Source: a virus
Direction: 5' to 3' (one strand)
IMG/VR virus record: IMGVR_UViG_3300027896_004158
Coordinates: 1-22,761 of that record
DNA length: 22,761 nucleotides
The translations under genes and the position numbers were made by a program. This document shows positions 11,854 to 19,321 of the stretch, piece by piece. Numbering within the stretch: the first letter of the stretch is position 1; the number at the start of each line of letters is the position of its first letter. Below the pieces are notes generated by a model. It searched no databases and had not been told where the DNA came from. It saw only the letters and a list, made by a program, of their open reading frames with translations.

Positions 11854-12762
11854 TTAACTACCGTAAGTTGGACTTAAAACGTTTGTAATCTTTACATGGA
11901 ACTTTGAAGCACCTTTAACTGCTAATGCTCTCCACGTTTTAACTCTGAACGCTCTTGCATCAGTTGTAGTTCTGCTTGTTAAATCTTCATAAGTGAAATT
12001 TTTAACAACAGGAACAGTAATACGAGAAGTATCTAAAGCTAATACGTAAGACTCAGAACCGCTTTTACCTAGATTAGTAGGAATGAAAGAAGTTCCGTAT
12101 AACGGAATACCACGATATTCTGTTAAATATACACCAGCTGCAACTTCAACTTTCTGCCATGCATACAACATTTTATCACGCATAATTTTATGTAACTTCT
12201 GTAAATCTCTAAAATTCATTACAAAAAGATTAATTTTACCATTATTGGTCTGTACTGCATCAATAGCCTGGTCTAATAAATCTAAAGAAATAACAGAACA
12301 TGCGGCATTAATTGTCTGAGTGCAAAGATTTGAAAGTCCATCAAATTCTTTTGTATTTGCTGTTGCATTACCTTCAATATAAAGCCTTTCTACTTCTTGA
12401 GCAGCCGATTTCGTTGCGCTCTCTATTTCAGCCTGCCAAGAATCTATATATGATTTTGAAGTTTCATATAAAATATTAGAAACAGCTCCTTCCGATTTTA
12501 CCATTTTAATTGTAACTGTTTTTCTACCATAAGTAGATTGATTCGAACTAAACGTATCAGCTTCATCATAGGCAGCCGCTGTATTAAGAGCTGACCTTTC
12601 ATTCCACTGATATGCAATACCTGTCCAATCCATTTCTTTTAAAAGAGTAATAAGGGGCGTTTCCTTTATTGCTGTTTCTACTAGAATGGGGTCAAGTTTT
12701 TCTGGTATAATTGCGGCACCAGATGCTGTTGATGTAACTAAAGCTTTCTTCAAGTCTAACAT
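11854..12762 (-). CDS. Major capsid protein, HK97 fold
   Basis: The 302-residue protein has a very strong ribosome binding site (GGAGG, spacing 8). Residues ~65-98 look like the E-loop (YDEADTFSSNQSTYGRKTVT). Residues ~107-130 form the long spine helix of the P-domain (SWQAEIESATKSAAQEVERL). DGLSNL, an A-domain with LFVMNFRDLQKLHKIMRDK, and a final beta part ending HVKITNVL follow. There is no long N-terminal delta domain, consistent with a separate scaffold encoded just upstream. About 415-420 copies would build a T=7 shell if the head is HK97-sized, but the T number cannot be read from sequence. A strong terminator follows at once. Confidence 0.93.
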   Translation of the reverse strand: MLDLKKALVTSTASGAAIIPEKLDPILVETAIKETPLITLLKEMDWTGIAYQWNERSALNTAAAYDEADTFSSNQSTYGRKTVTIKMVKSEGAVSNILYETSKSYIDSWQAEIESATKSAAQEVERLYIEGNATANTKEFDGLSNLCTQTINAACSVISLDLLDQAIDAVQTNNGKINLFVMNFRDLQKLHKIMRDKMLYAWQKVEVAAGVYLTEYRGIPLYGTSFIPTNLGKSGSESYVLALDTSRITVPVVKNFTYEDLTSRTTTDARAFRVKTWRALAVKGASKFHVKITNVLSPTYGS

Positions 12763-12791: not shown

Positions 12792-13880
12792 TTATTCTAC
12801 TTCAGCTAACTGTGACAATACTTCTTTCATTTTCTCTTCAATTGTTTTTGATTTTTGAATTTCAGCTTCTTTCTTTGAAGTAATCTCTTCCGTAACTAAA
12901 GCTAAACCTTTTTTAATTTCCACATCGGTAGCAGGAATTTTTGCAAGTTCATTTGCTAAAATTTCTTTAACCAATTGTTCTGTTAACATTGATTTTTTCA
13001 AATCTTGTATTAAAGAAACAACATCATTCATTGACTTAGTTACTTCAATTGGCTTAACAACTTCTATTTCTTTTTTATTTTTATCTTCAACTTTAGAAGT
13101 ATCTAATGATTTTGTAACTTTGTCTCCAGTATCTAAAGAACTAGTAACAGAAGTTACAGTATTAGGATCTGCTACTATTTTATTGTCAGGAAAACCTTCT
13201 GGCAACTTAGGAATATTAAATTTTGAACTATCTAAACTCTTATTGCAATACATACCAGTTTTCAAAGCCTTTGAAACCTTACATAAAGAATTTTTTATTT
13301 CCTGAGGATCTGTTAAACCAGATATTTTTTCTATAGTATTACCTAAATCCACATGATGACAATGTTTTCCATCGCCACATAATGAATTATCAATATAATC
13401 TCCAGGTGGAATAACTTCATTATTTTTTTGTACACTCATGTCAGCAACAACAGGAGATTTGTCATCTTTTTTCTTTTTTTCTATTTTATCTTCTTCTAAT
13501 TTCTGACCATTAATTTCACCCTTATTTTCAGAAGGATTTAATTCAGGGTCAACAACTGCATTATCTCCATCTTTTTTCTTATATACTTCCGCAGGTAATT
13601 CCACTGGCTTCATACCTTGATTTTTACCTTTATCTTCAACAGTTGGCTCTGGTTTTTCAGGATCTGGCTGACCTTGATTACTACCAGCTTTTTTATCATT
13701 AGATTGATCTTTTTCTTTTACAGGAGATAATCCCTGATTTTTTGAACTATCTATCTTTGCTGATTTTTGTATAACTTCATCTAAACTTTTACTTATTTCT
13801 AAAAATTCTGGAGAATTTGAAACTTTCTCCGCAAGTTTTTTCTCTTCCTGCTCAGCTGCTTGAATTTCTAATAACGTCAT
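12792..13880 (-). CDS. Nested scaffold protein from internal in-frame start
   Basis: An ATG at 13880, in frame with the protease gene, is preceded by GGAGGT at an ideal 6-base spacing. That is far better than anything before the protease start. The product is 362 residues beginning MTLLEIQAAEQEEKKLAEKV. It contains a disordered Lys/Glu/Pro-rich middle, a Cys/His cluster (CGDGKHCHHV, residues ~168-177), and a C-terminal helical region (~275-362) likely to contact the capsid protein. This matches the lambda C/Nu3 arrangement, where scaffold is made from an internal start of the protease gene in large excess. The site is visible; its use is inferred. Confidence 0.75.
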   Translation of the reverse strand: MTLLEIQAAEQEEKKLAEKVSNSPEFLEISKSLDEVIQKSAKIDSSKNQGLSPVKEKDQSNDKKAGSNQGQPDPEKPEPTVEDKGKNQGMKPVELPAEVYKKKDGDNAVVDPELNPSENKGEINGQKLEEDKIEKKKKDDKSPVVADMSVQKNNEVIPPGDYIDNSLCGDGKHCHHVDLGNTIEKISGLTDPQEIKNSLCKVSKALKTGMYCNKSLDSSKFNIPKLPEGFPDNKIVADPNTVTSVTSSLDTGDKVTKSLDTSKVEDKNKKEIEVVKPIEVTKSMNDVVSLIQDLKKSMLTEQLVKEILANELAKIPATDVEIKKGLALVTEEITSKKEAEIQKSKTIEEKMKEVLSQLAEVE

Positions 13881-14438
13881 TGTGCTACCTCCATTTGTTT
13901 CAATTTTATTTTTATCATTTTTTTGATAAGATTTTGCAATTTCAACAGATAATATCTTTGTTCTAACATTAGCTGATAGTGGAGTAAGAGAAACTTCATT
14001 GATTACTAAATCAGTGACCTCTCTAATCAAATCCATAGTTTTTCCACTAAGTTTTTCTATATAACCCAAAACCTTTCCACCTACAGAAAGACATTTTAAT
14101 ACTCCCTCTTCGCACTGTTGCCAAATATCAGAAGCCGTTTTTGATATAACAGCAGTTATTACAATTCCCTGTAATTTTTCATTATATTCTGAAGAAATTA
14201 TTTTACCAATAGCCCTATGAGGATCATGGTCATAAAGCAATACTCCATATGTTAAAACACTACTAGCAGCTTTTCTCATAACCTCTGGAGTTAAAACATA
14301 AATAGGAACATTATTGTCTTCTCCAACAGATGCAGCTATTCCAGTTAAAATCCAATCACCAGAATGTATATCTTTATAACTTTTAAGTATATTTATTTCA
14401 CAATCAAAATTAGATTCTATATTGAATTTTTGTTCCAT
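12792..14438 (-). CDS. Prohead serine protease fused to scaffold
   Basis: I take the ATG at 14438 (548 residues). The frame also holds an ATG at 14468, which would leave almost no leader after the promoter at 14477-14505; neither has a good ribosome binding site. Residues ~15-165 are a capsid-maturation protease domain: LLYDHDPHRAIGKI gives the catalytic His (H71 or H74), KCLSVGGK the Ser (S118), and NEVSLTPLSANV follows with E148. This is the layout of HK97-, lambda C- and XkdF-type proteases. Residues ~187-548 are low-complexity, Lys/Glu/Pro-rich and end in coiled-coil helices, as scaffolds do. The protein should act inside the procapsid and cleave scaffold and probably itself. An in-frame internal start makes the scaffold alone. 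Confidence 0.88.
   Translation of the reverse strand: MEQKFNIESNFDCEINILKSYKDIHSGDWILTGIAASVGEDNNVPIYVLTPEVMRKAASSVLTYGVLLYDHDPHRAIGKIISSEYNEKLQGIVITAVISKTASDIWQQCEEGVLKCLSVGGKVLGYIEKLSGKTMDLIREVTDLVINEVSLTPLSANVRTKILSVEIAKSYQKNDKNKIETNGGSTMTLLEIQAAEQEEKKLAEKVSNSPEFLEISKSLDEVIQKSAKIDSSKNQGLSPVKEKDQSNDKKAGSNQGQPDPEKPEPTVEDKGKNQGMKPVELPAEVYKKKDGDNAVVDPELNPSENKGEINGQKLEEDKIEKKKKDDKSPVVADMSVQKNNEVIPPGDYIDNSLCGDGKHCHHVDLGNTIEKISGLTDPQEIKNSLCKVSKALKTGMYCNKSLDSSKFNIPKLPEGFPDNKIVADPNTVTSVTSSLDTGDKVTKSLDTSKVEDKNKKEIEVVKPIEVTKSMNDVVSLIQDLKKSMLTEQLVKEILANELAKIPATDVEIKKGLALVTEEITSKKEAEIQKSKTIEEKMKEVLSQLAEVE
13887..13892 (-). promoter_or_regulatory. Strong internal ribosome binding site for the scaffold
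   Basis: GGAGGT lies 6 bases upstream of the in-frame ATG at 13880. It is inside the protease coding sequence, where it encodes part of a Gly-Gly-Ser stretch at the junction of the protease and scaffold parts. Its strength, compared with the poor site before the protease start, sets the expected excess of scaffold over protease. Confidence 0.75.
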
Positions 14439-14476
14439 ATTTTTATCTTTATTATACCTTTTGTACATAAAATAAT

Positions 14477-14569: not shown

Positions 14570-14800
14570 TTATTTATATGATATATCAACATAAACAGGA
14601 GTTGGATCAGAATAATATTTCAATTTAAAAGTATTTTTAAATGCATTATTTCCCATATCTTCATTATAACTTTCTTCAATCTCTTCTACTTTTAAATATA
14701 AATCATCCATACAATCTGAAAAAACACGTAAAACATCTTCTCCCTTTAAAATATCACTTTGTAAATAATCACCTAATGCAATCCCATCTGTAATTAACAT
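14570..14800 (-). CDS. Small acidic protein of unknown function
   Basis: The protein has 76 residues and is acidic, with a helical-looking N-terminal half (DILKGEDVLRVFSDCMDDLY) and a strand-rich end (KNTFKLKYYSDPTPVYVDIS). AAGGAG stands 5 bases before the ATG, so it is well translated. It lies between the pyrophosphatase/phosphoesterase-like gene and the capsid promoter. I do not recognise it. Its place among head genes suggests an assembly or minor head role, without further evidence. Confidence 0.65.
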   Translation of the reverse strand: MLITDGIALGDYLQSDILKGEDVLRVFSDCMDDLYLKVEEIEESYNEDMGNNAFKNTFKLKYYSDPTPVYVDISYK

Positions 14801-14810
14801 AAAATCTCCT

Positions 14811-16457
14811 TTATAATGTAATTAATTCAGGTATTATTCCCGGTTTTGACCAAATTAAATGAGTTTGACCCTTAGATTTAAGTTCTTTTATTAATTTGTC
14901 TTTATTATATTTATCATAAATTGGATTTTCATCAATTTGTTTTCTAATTAACCATATTCTATTACCATTTATTAGAACAAATGAAATAACGTATCTACCC
15001 TTACATATTCCATTGTTAATAAAAATTTCCATACTATGCTCTCGCCATACACCAATAGAATAATTACCTTTTTCAATTCTTATAAATTTAGCATAATAAT
15101 TAGAAGTTGCGCCCGCATATCCAGGATTTATTATATCTCCATTTACCTCAATCATTCCTGCTGGTTCAATATTTTTCCAAGTACCGCGAAAATAATCTTT
15201 TTTCAAGTAAAAATCATTACCAGATTCTAATTCTTTAGTTGTACCTAAAAATATAGTAAATCCAGATACATCTTTACTATTAAACTTCATTCTAAGATCA
15301 CCATGTACTGATTTATTTGTTTTAAGCAATTGTTCTTCATTCATTTTACTCTGATCTAAACTTAATCCTCTCCAATGATGATGATATGAAAATTCATCAT
15401 TTCCACTTTTTGGATAACACTTATACCAATTTAATGACCAAAACTTATCCCCATCGCTTTCATAATTCATACTCTTAATAACACTATTATCAACTTCGGG
15501 TTTCTTTAAATTTCTTGCTATTTTATCTGTAAACTCATGCCAACCTAATGCATGTATAACACCAGGATTAACAACTGGTGGTTTATTTTTAACATAAGTA
15601 TCTAAAGCTTCTTCTAAGCTATCAAATCCCAACATATATTTATCTTCATCGTAAATTCCATTTTTCATTTGTTCCATTTTAAATACCTTATCACTATTAT
15701 CATTAGGTCCACAATAACAATCAATATCCATTCCATCTGGAGAATCTGTGTGAGGTATGTAACCGTAATCTGCACTCATATTTATAGGATTATCACCACT
15801 TTTTCCAATTCTTTTACTTCCTTTTGGCCATTCTATAGCAACATTTACCCCATTGATAGTTCTAACTTTTCTAATTGGATCATTATTATCAATAGTTTTA
15901 TTATTTTCAGGTTTTTCTAAATTATTATTTACAAGAATGGTTTCTTTTATTGAAGTGTCTAATACTTTATTCTTTTTTTTATTATCACCATAAAGCTTTT
16001 GTGGTTCAAGAGCAGACCCATTTGAAGTATTTAAATCATTTTGTATAATTAAAGCTCTTTTAATTATTTCTAGTTTTCTAGAAATAACATCATTTCCACC
16101 CAATGTTTTCATAAACTTTTCCTCATTAACCGTATCATCTAAATCTGTTATATTATAATGTTTATAATTATTATCTCTTAACCATTTTGCTAAATTTCTA
16201 TGCTCTTCAACAATTAAATTCTTATTAATTGGTTTTCCCTTAAGAGCGCCAGACCTATTATAAACCTCATTACCATTATTTAATTTTTCATATAAAACAT
16301 GGCACAATCTATGCGCATTCAATACTTCCTTCATATTTAATTCATTATTTGGAAGTTTTTCTACATAATTTTTATAAGATTTTATAAAATTAATTTCATT
16401 CAATTCTCCGTCTACTTTAATATTATCCATTAACTTGTTCGTTTGCTTGTTGTCCAT
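14811..16457 (-). CDS. Head-module protein with pyrophosphatase-like and LigD phosphoesterase-like domains
   Basis: I choose the ATG at 16457 (548 residues), which AAGGA precedes by 8 bases; an ATG at 16430 forms an ATGGATAA overlap with the portal stop and is also possible. Residues ~27-137 are helical. Residues ~197-305 resemble the inorganic-pyrophosphatase-like domain of phage polyvalent proteins: SADYGYIPHTDSPDGMDID, CGPN, then DEDKYMLGFDSLEEAL. The metal-binding aspartate signature is altered (DGMDID rather than DGDxxD). Residues ~357-507 resemble the 3'-phosphoesterase domain of DNA ligase D: HHHW, then VHGDLRMKF with H385, D387 and R389, GYAGAT and RIWLIRKQ. No ligase or polymerase domain is present. 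It may act on packaged DNA ends or be a degenerate structural protein. The domain calls are from memory of motifs; the function is not known. Confidence 0.68.
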   Translation of the reverse strand: MDNKQTNKLMDNIKVDGELNEINFIKSYKNYVEKLPNNELNMKEVLNAHRLCHVLYEKLNNGNEVYNRSGALKGKPINKNLIVEEHRNLAKWLRDNNYKHYNITDLDDTVNEEKFMKTLGGNDVISRKLEIIKRALIIQNDLNTSNGSALEPQKLYGDNKKKNKVLDTSIKETILVNNNLEKPENNKTIDNNDPIRKVRTINGVNVAIEWPKGSKRIGKSGDNPINMSADYGYIPHTDSPDGMDIDCYCGPNDNSDKVFKMEQMKNGIYDEDKYMLGFDSLEEALDTYVKNKPPVVNPGVIHALGWHEFTDKIARNLKKPEVDNSVIKSMNYESDGDKFWSLNWYKCYPKSGNDEFSYHHHWRGLSLDQSKMNEEQLLKTNKSVHGDLRMKFNSKDVSGFTIFLGTTKELESGNDFYLKKDYFRGTWKNIEPAGMIEVNGDIINPGYAGATSNYYAKFIRIEKGNYSIGVWREHSMEIFINNGICKGRYVISFVLINGNRIWLIRKQIDENPIYDKYNKDKLIKELKSKGQTHLIWSKPGIIPELITL

Positions 16458-17817
16458 TTTTTTCATCCTTTGTTTGTAATTTTATATTATCTATTTTTTT
16501 ATCAGATTGATTTATTATTTGATTTGGAAATGGAACTGGTTGACCACTACCGTCAACATTTAATATTGCTTTAGAAGCATCGCTAAATGGCAATATTGGT
16601 TTATTTCCCCAATCTACTGGTTTCATTCCCCTAGACTTTCTAATTTCATTAATAACTTTTATTCCATCTTTTAAATCAGATCCGTCTATCTTAGATTGAT
16701 TTATAAGATCCAAATCGTTAACTGGATTAAATTTAAATTGAAGATCAAAATTTGGAAATAATCTAGGTATAAGTCTTCTATTAATACGATTTTCAATAAT
16801 TTTCTGAACTGGATTAACTGCAAGAAATTTAAAAATTTCTATTTGATAATCAGCATTTAAACTCTTGCTATCATCTAATATTCCAAGCATAATTGGTGGA
16901 ACTTTATAAAATCCCATAATTCTTGCTCTTAACATTTTTATATATGTATTAAATTCCATATCGGAATTTTTTAAACTAATTGGAGTAACAATAACTCCAC
17001 CTCTTGTTACCAAATTACGATGTGGTTTACCCTTAAGTTCTTTTTCTGCTTGACCAGTAAATGCCATCATTTCTTTTGCACTTACTTTTCCAAGATCTAT
17101 ATGAAGCCTTGGTGTTGCATTATTATAAAAAAATCTACCATTATATTCATCGGCAAATAAATAAGAAGCCAATGTATTATCTCTATTTGCTACAGGAGAA
17201 TGACCCCTTACGTCTGATACAGGACTTGGCATTTTAAAGAAAATAAGTTCATCTTTATTAAATGTTATAATTGGTATTCCAAAATTATTCTTTTGTAAAA
17301 AGCCAGTAATTATTCCCTGCTGTGTAGCAGTTGGTGATACAAAATATGCACTAAGCTTATATAAATAAAATGGTATATTTAATCTTCTAACATCTGTTCT
17401 AGAATCTATCATTTGATAAAACTTAAGAACTAAATTTGGTTTAATTATAGGCTGCCAATAACCTTCACCAAAAAGTAATAAATCCATACATGAATCAATT
17501 ATAAGATCATCAATTGTATCATTTTCATTTGGTTCAAAAAAGAATCTATCTAATACTGATTTTTGATATTCATCAATAGTTGAACCAAATCTTGGTTCAT
17601 AATGAAAACCACCATTAGTAACACCATATGTAACAGCTTCTATACAATCTCTAATTACATCTACCTGTTTATACAACTTAAGCAATGTTGGATTATCTAT
17701 ATCTTCTTTATAAACTTCTTGCTGAACTCCCCATGTTGTAATTCCAACAGCAGTGCGTGGCTCATATGACTTTTTTATTTTAATATTATTTTTCTTATCT
17801 TCCATATTTTCAGTCAT
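16423..17817 (-). CDS. Portal protein
   Basis: The portal is the dodecameric ring at the head vertex through which DNA is packaged. The protein has 464 residues, the size of HK97/SPP1-type portals. Recognisable parts are an N-terminal DVIRDCIEAVTYGVTNGGF, CMDLLLFGEGYW, the beta/wing part FNKDELIFFKMPS, and the conserved helical core with RARIMGFYKVPPIMLGILDD followed by IEIFKFLAVNPVQKIIENRI. The Pro/Gln/Asn/Lys-rich tail (~430-464) is disordered. Terminase precedes it and head genes follow. I choose the ATG at 17817, which forms an 8-base ATGACTGA overlap with the terminase stop; a TTG at 17826 would add three residues. A K-S-Y motif lies near residue 16. Confidence 0.92.
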   Translation of the reverse strand: MTENMEDKKNNIKIKKSYEPRTAVGITTWGVQQEVYKEDIDNPTLLKLYKQVDVIRDCIEAVTYGVTNGGFHYEPRFGSTIDEYQKSVLDRFFFEPNENDTIDDLIIDSCMDLLLFGEGYWQPIIKPNLVLKFYQMIDSRTDVRRLNIPFYLYKLSAYFVSPTATQQGIITGFLQKNNFGIPIITFNKDELIFFKMPSPVSDVRGHSPVANRDNTLASYLFADEYNGRFFYNNATPRLHIDLGKVSAKEMMAFTGQAEKELKGKPHRNLVTRGGVIVTPISLKNSDMEFNTYIKMLRARIMGFYKVPPIMLGILDDSKSLNADYQIEIFKFLAVNPVQKIIENRINRRLIPRLFPNFDLQFKFNPVNDLDLINQSKIDGSDLKDGIKVINEIRKSRGMKPVDWGNKPILPFSDASKAILNVDGSGQPVPFPNQIINQSDKKIDNIKLQTKDEKNGQQANEQVNG

Positions 17818-19321
17818 TGTCTTCAACCCCCATGTAGGCTATTACAGGCCCATCATTATATTCTATTTTATTATTTTCTATTAATAAAGGATATATTGCA
17901 AAACATCTTATAGCTGACAAATTATGATCTACACCTTGATAAACATAAGTTCCATCTTTTAATTTTGTCTTTGTAGAACTTTGTATTTCGTTAAAAATTT
18001 CACTATTATCATTTTCTTTTGGTAATTGAAGTATTTTTTTTTGAAACATACTTTCAATTAAAATTGTACTATGAGACTTAATTCTACTTGTTATTTCTTT
18101 AACATTATCATTAGAATCTATTTCTTCTCCTAATTTAACAGTTCCTTGAAAATCAACAGGAATTACTCTATATGGTTTATCTGGAAAATCAGAATCACTA
18201 GCTAAATCTAAAACAACAGATCTCCCAACACCTCCAGCATCTATAGCAACTATTGATATTCTACATTGTCTAAGTATATAATCTATTATTTTTGCTTGCT
18301 TTGTAAATCTAACCGAATCAAATTTAAATTTACAACTCAATCTCCATATTTGACCTTGTATATTTTCAAATAATAAATAAATTGAAGGATCTGGATTATA
18401 ACCTATATCACAACATAGTGCATATTTATAATCGTCCTCTATTACAGGTAATTCTAATTCATCATTTATATCATCTTCGTTAATATCATTTCCATTTATA
18501 TTGCAAACATAATAATTTGGTAAATCAATAAATGATGGTAAATAATATTTAGAACTAAATGTTGAATGCTGAATTATATCATCTTCTCCCAAAACTTGAT
18601 TTCTATATCCTGGAGATGACTCTCCACCATATATCTTTATTAACCTTTGTCTTTCTTTTTCAGTAAATGTAGGATCTTGTAGTCTTGTTATTTTATGTTT
18701 TCTAAATTCAGGTATATCGTTACTATTCCATTGTATTGATAAAAAGCTATCTCTCAAACCATTAGGAACACCATAACATTTAATTACAGCGCCTGGAATA
18801 ATACATCCCTGAAGTTCTGATAATGCAGAACCAGTATATAATTGACTCTCATCTACATATAAGAAATTAACATGAAGTGAAAGAACACCCTTACCACCAG
18901 AAGTTCCTGCAATTCTACCATACAAAGTATAACCATTATTAAATTCAATTAAATATTCCGGAGATCTAATAACTCTAACTGCAAAATTCCTATAAATAGG
19001 ATCAGCTGCTATGAAATTTATCAATGCAGTAAATAACGGATCCAAATGAGCCTTGCTAGGAGTTGTTAACAAACCAGATTTATTTGGATTCAAAAGAGCA
19101 TCTTGCATTAAAACAGATTTTAAAGTAGTTGTTTTGCCAACTCCCCTACCACATCTCTGAACACTATCGCAATTCTGATCTAATAACATATTGTCTTGAT
19201 ATATTCTACTTAATTCTACATTACGATCAATTCTTGGTAAAATAACATTAAAATAAGGTATTGGGCTATTCAAGCAAGAACATAAAAATAATTCATCATT
19301 AGTTAATTGTCTCTCTACCAT
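17810..19321 (-). CDS. Large terminase subunit (packaging ATPase and nuclease)
   Basis: This motor protein pumps DNA into the procapsid and cuts it. All main motifs are visible in 503 residues: the Walker A-type CGRGVGKTTT at residues ~57-66, Walker B NFLYVDESQ with D157 and E158, and a coupling-type YGVPNG near 183-188. The RNase H-like nuclease carries D305 (LCCDIGYNPDPS), D361 (IVAIDAGGVGRS) and D465 (QGVDHNLSAIRC). GGG follows AAA at a 7-base spacing before the ATG, which lies 2 bases past the stop of the preceding zinc-finger gene. No intein or intron interrupts it. I cannot tell headful from cos packaging by eye. Confidence 0.96.
   Translation of the reverse strand: MVERQLTNDELFLCSCLNSPIPYFNVILPRIDRNVELSRIYQDNMLLDQNCDSVQRCGRGVGKTTTLKSVLMQDALLNPNKSGLLTTPSKAHLDPLFTALINFIAADPIYRNFAVRVIRSPEYLIEFNNGYTLYGRIAGTSGGKGVLSLHVNFLYVDESQLYTGSALSELQGCIIPGAVIKCYGVPNGLRDSFLSIQWNSNDIPEFRKHKITRLQDPTFTEKERQRLIKIYGGESSPGYRNQVLGEDDIIQHSTFSSKYYLPSFIDLPNYYVCNINGNDINEDDINDELELPVIEDDYKYALCCDIGYNPDPSIYLLFENIQGQIWRLSCKFKFDSVRFTKQAKIIDYILRQCRISIVAIDAGGVGRSVVLDLASDSDFPDKPYRVIPVDFQGTVKLGEEIDSNDNVKEITSRIKSHSTILIESMFQKKILQLPKENDNSEIFNEIQSSTKTKLKDGTYVYQGVDHNLSAIRCFAIYPLLIENNKIEYNDGPVIAYMGVEDND

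What the first reader, a model, noticed from the sequence alone, without database searches (positions are those of the whole stretch)
14811..16457. Pyrophosphatase-like plus LigD phosphoesterase-like protein between portal and protease
A 548-aa protein in the head module joins a helical domain, an inorganic-pyrophosphatase-like domain with an altered Asp signature (DGMDID), and a domain resembling the 3'-phosphoesterase of DNA ligase D (VHGDLRMKF, GYAGAT, WLIRKQ), without a ligase. Such domains are known in phage polyvalent proteins. Their job next to the portal, such as tending packaged DNA ends, acting as ejected proteins or only building structure, is unknown.
Basis: partly seen in the sequence, partly recalled or inferred. 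Interest (0 to 1): 0.62.

Follow-up and report, generated by a model that had tools for sequence, protein, structure and literature searches.

The report
DNA-repair-like protein in phage head module
This phage gene, sitting between the portal and the capsid protease, encodes a cut-down member of a large, apparently undescribed family of head-module proteins that combine DNA-repair enzymes (end-cleaning, ligase, uracil removal), which suggests that some phages may carry their own DNA-mending kit into the host.

Summary
The ORF is on the minus strand (548 aa, 14811-16457). It holds an InPase domain (Pfam 6e-24) with an altered DGMDID signature, and a LigD 3'-phosphoesterase (PE) domain. The PE AlphaFold model (pLDDT 92) has the six known LigD-PE structure entries as its top six PDB hits. 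The Mn ligands (H361, H385, D387) and phosphate Arg (R389) are invariant in 75 unique relatives. The "helical domain" is T4-endonuclease-V-like (Pyr_excise), without the catalytic Glu.

The main result is the family. About 85 viral contigs carry the PE inside large head-module proteins. Of 45 non-redundant ones, 37 contain an ATP-dependent DNA ligase, 36 a C-terminal prohead protease and 24 a uracil-DNA glycosylase. A relative of the window phage (MCP 57% identical) has, in the same place, a 1276-aa protein with the same ends and NTase-methyltransferase-ligase in the middle; in the window InPase takes that place.

Best reading: a head-associated, probably packaged, DNA-end-processing protein. 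Packaging and activity are not shown. Against activity: LigD His84/Tyr88 are Gln/Trp in the clade and Glu/Met here, and the pyrophosphatase general base is Met. Held literature describes InPase in phage polyvalent proteins, not PE or ligase fused to head proteases.

The parts
14811..16457 (-). 548-aa protein: EndoV/Pyr_excise-like domain - linker - InPase - LigD-like phosphoesterase
   Evidence: ORF and start site; domains
16128..16340 (-). residues 40-110: N-terminal helical domain, homologous to the N-terminus of the L087 protein and related to Pyr_excise (T4 endonuclease V family); catalytic Glu position not kept
   Evidence: BLASTP to L087 residues 40-150, 36% identity, E 1.7e-14; hhalign to Pyr_excise members prob 92, E 5e-7, score 39.2 vs shuffle maximum 17.2; AF2 helices
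15882..16118 (-). residues 114-192: linker of low model confidence
   Evidence: pLDDT below 50 over most of 101-192
15528..15872 (-). residues 196-310: InPase domain (PF18823)
   Evidence: Pfam 6e-24; AF2 pLDDT mostly above 90, Foldseek top hits all inorganic pyrophosphatases
15720..15737 (-). DGMDID (241-246): altered metal-site signature, Met243 where relatives have Asp/Glu
14814..15449 (-). residues 337-548: LigD-type 3'-phosphoesterase-like domain
   Evidence: alignment A3, hhalign, AF2 pLDDT 92.2, Foldseek top six are LigD PE entries
15375..15377 (-). His361, counterpart of LigD His42 (Mn ligand)
   Evidence: invariant in 75 unique PE rows; partly biased by a search pattern
15291..15305 (-). 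HGDLR (385-389): counterparts of LigD His48, Asp50 (Mn) and Arg52 (phosphate)
   Evidence: H, D, R invariant in 75 rows, not part of any search pattern
15153..15167 (-). EPAGM (431-435): counterpart of the LigD His84-Pro-x-x-Tyr88 loop; QPxxW in most of the clade
   Evidence: LigD roles from PMC8656161
15036..15047 (-). WREH (471-474): clade-specific motif, His474 kept in 73 of 75
16423..17826 (-). portal protein
   Evidence: Pfam 6e-32, 39% identical to the L087 portal
14570..14800 (-). small ORF, 76 aa, no assignment
   Evidence: read from the sequence
12792..14468 (-). S78 prohead protease with long charged C-terminus; likely start at the internal Met11 (MEQKF)
   Evidence: Pfam 1.8e-5; 40% to the L087 protease, whose start aligns with Met11
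11854..12762 (-). major capsid protein (SU10/HK97 type)
   Evidence: Pfam 2.8e-13; 57% to the L087 MCP
17810..19321 (-). terminase large subunit
   Evidence: PHROG 1.5e-9; 42% to the L087 TerL

Best explanation
The gene encodes a DNA-processing protein of the phage head module, most likely made with the prohead, packaged or held near the portal, and delivered with the DNA. It is a shortened member of a family whose full form is [Pyr_excise-like]-[NTase]-[methyltransferase or MBL]-[ATP-dependent DNA ligase]-[uracil-DNA glycosylase]-[LigD-type 3'-phosphoesterase]-[prohead protease]. Shown by sequence and model: domain identities, synteny, and an InPase domain standing where a relative of this phage has NTase, methyltransferase and ligase. 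Inferred: the PE domain uses Mn bound by H361/H385/D387, with R389 on the phosphate, to turn blocked 3' ends (3'-phosphate or 3'-ribonucleotide) into 3'-OH, so that breaks or nicks in phage DNA can be extended and sealed, here by another ligase (host's or phage's own). In most relatives the protein is fused in front of the head protease, so the protease would free the repair enzymes during head maturation. Here the protease is the next sizeable gene. The InPase domain is probably weak or inactive as a pyrophosphatase, and the N-terminal domain a DNA-binding relic.
For: PE fold: top six Foldseek hits are the LigD PE entries, next hit prob 0.16. Profile match with shuffle control. Two bridging proteins pass Pfam's own LigD_N cut-off (L065 57 bits, L042 50 bits, cut-off 31.1). 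Metal triad, R389, K428 and E477 invariant in 75 unique rows, including forms without a ligase. 37/45 relatives have a ligase, 24 UDG, 36 XkdF protease. Synteny portal - (MuF) - this gene - MCP in the relatives checked and the positional homologue in L087. N-terminal domain. Intein-like inserts at the same PE loop in two proteins. InPase as a packaged polyvalent-protein domain, also fused to portals: PMC5512222 and the Pa193 portal. LigD PE chemistry: PMC8656161.
Against: No virion proteomics or biochemistry. LigD His84 and Tyr88, whose mutants are dead in P. aeruginosa LigD, are Gln and Trp in the clade and Glu and Met here. Met435 is unique to the window. The InPase general-base position is Met. 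The window row has a long branch. No ligase is found in this 22.8-kb fragment. Delivery into the cell rests on analogy.
Confidence: 0.5

Rival explanations
1. Structural or scaffold-like head protein. The enzyme-derived domains have lost catalysis and serve as DNA-binding or assembly modules near the portal.
For: All three domains deviate at a catalytic position: Glu lost in the EndoV-like domain, Met243 in InPase, Glu431/Met435 in PE. Long branch. The InPase tail of the Pa193 portal gave no cryo-EM density (PMC11042391), so it is a flexible appendage there.
Against: Metal triad, R389, K428 and E477 are invariant across the clade including the window. The other residues of the InPase site (E209, Y231, D241, D246, D270, K273) are kept. 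Most relatives carry several further enzyme domains.
Confidence: 0.25
2. Early effector against host defence. The InPase acts on nucleotides or nucleotide signals, or removes PPi, and the PE acts on RNA or nucleotide 3' phosphates after injection.
For: Proposed for polyvalent InPase domains (PMC5512222). Methyltransferase and MBL domains in relatives fit counter-defence.
Against: The most frequent partners are ligase and UDG, a DNA-repair set, not a nucleotide-signal set. The InPase here lost its usual acidic residue.
Confidence: 0.12
3. Acts in the producing cell at packaging: cleans the 3' ends or nicks of DNA being packaged at the portal vertex, and is not delivered.
For: Gene position between portal and protease or MCP in the loci examined. 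Fusion to the head protease ties it to assembly.
Against: UDG, methyltransferase and NTase partners are more easily explained by damage during the extracellular phase or at entry. No contact with the terminase was tested.
Confidence: 0.13

Closest known systems
LigD 3'-phosphoesterase domain (Pfam LigD_N PF13298; PDB 3n9b, 3p43, 5dmp, 3p4h, 2lj6)
   Same: Fold, HxDLR motif with upstream His (Mn triad), phosphate Arg; linked to an ATP-dependent ligase in relatives.
   Different: 23 residues instead of 5 between the first His and HxDLR; HPxxY loop is QPxxW (window EPxxM); extra conserved K428, WREH, E477; located in phage head modules.
InPase domain of phage polyvalent proteins (Pfam PF18823; Iyer et al. 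2017, PMC5512222) and the C-terminal tail of the Pbunavirus Pa193 portal gp19 (PDB 9b41)
   Same: Sequence family (6e-24; 9b41 2e-16), head-module or portal context.
   Different: DGMDID instead of DG[DE]xxD; joined to a PE domain, which was not seen in any of 80 other InPase loci.
Pyr_excise / T4 endonuclease V family (PF03013)
   Same: Two-helix pattern LLxxHRxxH ... EMxRRGxxH, profile match prob 92.
   Different: The Glu of the HRE motif (Glu23 in T4, from memory) is not Glu here; the domain does not begin at the protein's N-terminus, so the catalytic N-terminal amine is lacking.
Prohead protease-methyltransferase fusions and XkdF proteases (for example 'DNA methyltransferase/prohead protease protein' of Rhizobium phages)
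   Same: By annotation, a DNA-acting enzyme in the same gene as the head protease.
   Different: Relatives here carry ligase, UDG, NTase and PE; in the window the protease is a separate gene.
ANMV-1 virus 'ATP-dependent DNA ligase' (KP703175, AJP62006)
   Same: NTase - ligase - PE-like order in one protein.
   Different: PE has HGDLM; the terminase large subunit is annotated 4.4 kb downstream on the other strand; no InPase.

Membership tests
LigD 3'-phosphoesterase (LigD_N) | Fold and profile similarity | tested here: met
   Foldseek top six; hhalign 49.6 vs shuffle maximum 23.5; LigD_N hit in 19/25 relatives, but not in the window sequence alone
LigD 3'-phosphoesterase (LigD_N) | Mn triad His42, His48, Asp50 | tested here: met
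   H361, H385, D387 by alignment, invariant in 75 rows; geometry not measured
LigD 3'-phosphoesterase (LigD_N) | Phosphate-binding Arg52, His84, Tyr88 | tested here: not met
   R389 kept; His84 and Tyr88 replaced by Gln/Trp in the clade and Glu431/Met435 here
LigD 3'-phosphoesterase (LigD_N) | Mn-dependent 3'-phosphatase/3'-ribonuclease activity | not testable with these tools
   needs purified protein
LigD (whole enzyme) | Ligase domain with POL and/or PE, partner of Ku | tested here: not met
   No ligase in this protein or contig; relatives have ligase+PE but an NTase of a different kind and a protease; Ku not sought
Polyvalent-protein InPase (PF18823) | Profile match above curated cut-off | tested here: met
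   84.9 bits vs cut-off 26.8
Polyvalent-protein InPase (PF18823) | Conserved acidic metal ligands of type I pyrophosphatases | tested here: not met
   D241, D246, D270 and E209 kept, third signature residue Met243 instead of Asp/Glu
Phage polyvalent protein | Several unrelated effector or nucleic-acid domains in one protein encoded with packaging genes | tested here: met
   three domains, between portal and protease
Phage polyvalent protein | Packaged in the virion and transferred to the host | not testable with these tools
   inferred from gene position only
Pyr_excise (T4 endonuclease V) | Profile similarity | tested here: met
   prob 92.4, E 5e-7 with the family alignment; window alone not distinguishable from shuffles (15.8 vs 15.7)
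Pyr_excise (T4 endonuclease V) | Catalytic Glu and N-terminal amine | tested here: not met
   HRE is HRL in the window and HRR or other in relatives; the domain starts about 40 residues into the protein; catalytic roles in T4 endonuclease V are from memory

The most novel reading that the evidence does not exclude
A widespread class of tailed phages encodes, in the head module and usually fused to the prohead protease, a polyprotein that is a DNA-repair kit (uracil removal, 3'-end healing, nucleotidyl transfer, nick sealing). It would be packaged, cut free by the head protease and injected to mend the phage genome on entry. The window phage carries a reduced kit in which an InPase stands in place of the ligase part.
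Probability: 0.38. Interest if true: 0.82.

Novelty: new variant of a known kind. Interest (0 to 1): 0.64.

Why it matters
If the family works as its domains suggest, phages carry repair enzymes in or with the particle, tied to the head protease, so that damaged or nicked genomes can be mended at entry. That would join NHEJ-type end healing and base-excision repair to virion biology, offer a ready set of compact end-healing and ligase enzymes, and explain a protein type now annotated only as 'ligase', 'DNA methyltransferase' or 'hypothetical'. It is directly testable: the domains are separate and have standard assays.

Tried and rejected
Full-length AlphaFold alignment (A6): MAFFT placed the InPase rows on the PE region, so it was dropped and the protein was modelled in two parts. 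N-terminal homology to the family by a single-sequence hhalign was negative; it became clear only through L087 and family profiles. Sequence search of the PE profile in PDB gave only weak LigD hits among chance hits. Search of known phages with the window PE alone: no match. Search for closer relatives by portal and MCP patterns: none. InPase+PE combination elsewhere: none in 80 InPase loci. Idea that the PE is a cellular gene caught on a viral contig: rejected, since strong hits occur in only 2 of 400 Chloroflexota genomes but in about 85 viral contigs, with head genes beside it in the loci checked. Idea of an assembly artefact: rejected by the many contigs with the same fusions and the syntenic L087.

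Full report
WHAT IS THERE. The window is a 22,761-base viral record of about 28% G+C. Its genes lie on the minus strand in the order terminase large subunit, portal, the target, a 76-aa ORF, S78 prohead protease, major capsid protein, head-tail proteins, tape measure. The target starts at ATG 16457 with AAGGA 8 nt upstream, overlaps the end of the portal gene, and stops at 14811-14813: 548 aa.

INPASE DOMAIN. Residues 196-310 match Pfam InPase (PF18823) with E = 6e-24 and PHROG 'minor head protein'. In the PDB they match residues 633-744 of the Pbunavirus Pa193 portal gp19 (9b41, E = 2e-16). In that work the portal was modelled only for residues 94-528; 529-765, which include this domain, had no density, and the word pyrophosphatase does not occur in the paper (PMC11042391). 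Over 450 viral relatives exist. The AlphaFold model of residues 1-337 has pLDDT mostly above 90 for the domain, and Foldseek returns inorganic pyrophosphatases with probability near 1.00. E209, Y231, D241, D246, D270, E271 and K273 are invariant in 43 aligned sequences. The third residue of DGxxxD is D 46, E 7, G 1 in 54 relatives and acidic in 51 of 52 non-redundant ones, against Met243 here. In E. coli pyrophosphatase this position is Asp67, the general base (from memory). I therefore expect weak or no pyrophosphatase activity.

PE DOMAIN. A first scan with the whole protein found one relative, of the C-terminal part only (L002, 47%). Iterated alignment scans found 3, then 30, then 99 viral relatives. 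The 25-row alignment A3 gave an AlphaFold model of residues 337-548 with mean pLDDT 92.2 and pTM 0.88. Foldseek against the PDB: the first six hits are the six LigD phosphoesterase entries (3p43 E 1.6e-5, 3n9b, 5dmp, 3n9d, 3p4h, 2lj6), all probability 1.00; the seventh, a lipocalin, has 0.16. Profile-profile comparison with 19 cellular LigD PE domains: probability 92, E 5.9e-7, score 49.6. Sixty column shuffles reach at most 23.5 (mean 15.0, s.d. 2.7), and the reversed alignment 13.6. Pfam LigD_N is hit by 19 of 25 rows (best 4.2e-5), not by the window itself. Two bridging proteins pass Pfam's cut-off of 31.1 bits: L065 (57.1 bits) and L042 (50.4 bits).

ACTIVE SITE OF THE PE. In P. aeruginosa LigD the Mn is held by His42, His48 and Asp50, and the phosphate mimic by Arg52, His84 and Tyr88; mutants of His42, His48, Asp50, His84 and Tyr88 are inactive (PMC8656161). 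By alignment His42 = H361, His48 = H385, Asp50 = D387, Arg52 = R389: all invariant in 75 unique rows. H361 was part of one search pattern and H474 of another; H385, D387, R389, K428 and E477 were in none of the two widest scans. The LigD loop His84-Pro-x-x-Tyr88 becomes Gln-Pro-x-x-Trp in the clade, also in both bridging proteins, and Glu-Pro-Ala-Gly-Met in the window. Met435 is the only departure from Trp in 75 rows; one relative (L084) keeps His at the His84 place. So the metal site is intact in sequence, and the phosphate pocket has been remodelled. I could not superpose structures, because coordinates are not exposed.

N-TERMINAL DOMAIN. Residues 43-155 match residues 40-150 of the L087 protein at 36% identity (E 1.7e-14). 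The family alignment A9 matches cellular Pyr_excise (PF03013, T4 endonuclease V family) domains with probability 92 and E 5e-7, score 39.2 against a shuffle maximum of 17.2. The family without the window and L087's first copy scores 32.7 against 22.4; window plus L087 scores 26.8 against 15.8; the window alone (15.8 against 15.7) is not distinguishable from shuffles. Pfam itself hints at this in two relatives (E 0.0056 and 0.0082). The Glu after His-Arg, conserved in the cellular members, is Leu here, so I read it as a DNA-binding relic.

THE FAMILY. About 85 loci carry the PE domain inside long ORFs. Of 45 non-redundant ones, 37 match DNA_ligase_A_M, 36 XkdF protease (Peptidase_S78_2) at the C-terminus, 24 UDG, 12 SAM methyltransferases (Methyltransf_11), 3 Dam methyltransferases, and several a metallo-beta-lactamase fold. 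Domain maps made with profiles from the set itself agree and add the NTase and the N-terminal domain. Upstream neighbours are portal and MuF proteins, downstream the major capsid protein, in the loci checked. Forms without a ligase occur several times and keep the PE residues. Among isolated or named viruses the domain is nearly absent: tblastn of 50,697 phage records with the window PE finds none, and BFVD gives one hit. The ANMV-1 virus 'ATP-dependent DNA ligase' has NTase, ligase and a divergent PE.

THE SYNTENIC RELATIVE. L087 (IMGVR_UViG_3300009503_000050; nearly the same sequence in L091) is related to the window phage over the head module: MCP 57%, TerL 42%, protease 40%, portal 39%, further head and tail proteins 29-50%. 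Between portal and protease it has a 1276-aa protein with the same N-terminal domain, a second copy of it, NTase, methyltransferase (7e-19), ligase (9e-17) and PE, and no fused protease. The window gene is thus a positional homologue in which an InPase stands where NTase, methyltransferase and ligase stand in the relative. The direction of change is not fixed by the tree, where the window row is long and groups with L065 at 95/78 support.

HOW IT MOST LIKELY WORKS. Shown: domains, metal-site residues, position, family. Inferred: (1) the protein is co-assembled with the prohead, since most relatives are fused to the protease; (2) it stays with the packaged DNA and may be ejected, as proposed for InPase polyvalent proteins (PMC5512222); (3) the PE heals 3' ends (3'-phosphate or 3'-ribonucleotide to 3'-OH) of damaged phage DNA; (4) in full-length relatives UDG, NTase and ligase finish the repair, while here another ligase must do so. 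The weakest step is (3), because of the altered His84/Tyr88 loop, followed by (2).

LITERATURE. In the held library (open-licence PMC papers) the polyvalent-protein paper treats InPase but has no mention of LigD, and searches for LigD, phosphoesterase, ligase or UDG together with capsid, prohead protease or XkdF terms showed no paper on such fusions among the titles listed. Subscription papers are not held, so absence of a description is not proven.

VERDICT. The finding is real and correctly read at the domain level. Its interest lies less in the window protein, which may be partly decayed, than in the family it exposes.

Noticed in passing
L033:2952-10703 and L035:4878-9698: The fusion proteins carry intein-like inserts (Pfam Intein_splicing 1.4e-19, LAGLIDADG): three in L033 (NTase, directly after the ligase KFDGFR motif, and PE) and one in L035. 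The PE inserts of both lie at the same place, after QP of the QPxxW loop.
   Followed up: partly
L029:2069-4453: A 795-aa portal protein has a roughly 370-residue insert matching PHROG terminase/primase families; probably an intein in the portal gene.
   Followed up: no
L042 (same MAG as L006, Dehalococcoidia): Separate ligase ORF followed by a 660-aa ORF with LigD_N-type repeats (50 bits, two stretches): a non-fused or ancestral arrangement.
   Followed up: partly
PDB 9b41 (Pa193 portal gp19, residues 529-765): The InPase tail of a solved phage portal had no cryo-EM density and is not called a pyrophosphatase in the paper.
   Followed up: partly
L065:3525-5969: MBL fold + two PE domains + S78-like protease in one protein; closest PE relative of the window (48-49%).
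   Followed up: partly
L074:6792-9041: DHH-family phosphoesterase fused to the N-terminal domain, PE and protease.
   Followed up: no
PHROG phrog_1530 ('DNA methyltransferase'): For L003 the match covers only the XkdF protease part (profile 230-359), so some head proteases may be named 'DNA methyltransferase' for the wrong part.
   Followed up: no
window 14436-14468: The protease gene probably starts at the internal Met11 (MEQKF), which aligns with the start of the L087 protease, not at the first ATG.
   Followed up: no
L087 residues 40-105 and 300-385: Two copies of the Pyr_excise-like domain in one protein; the window keeps the first type, most relatives the second.
   Followed up: partly
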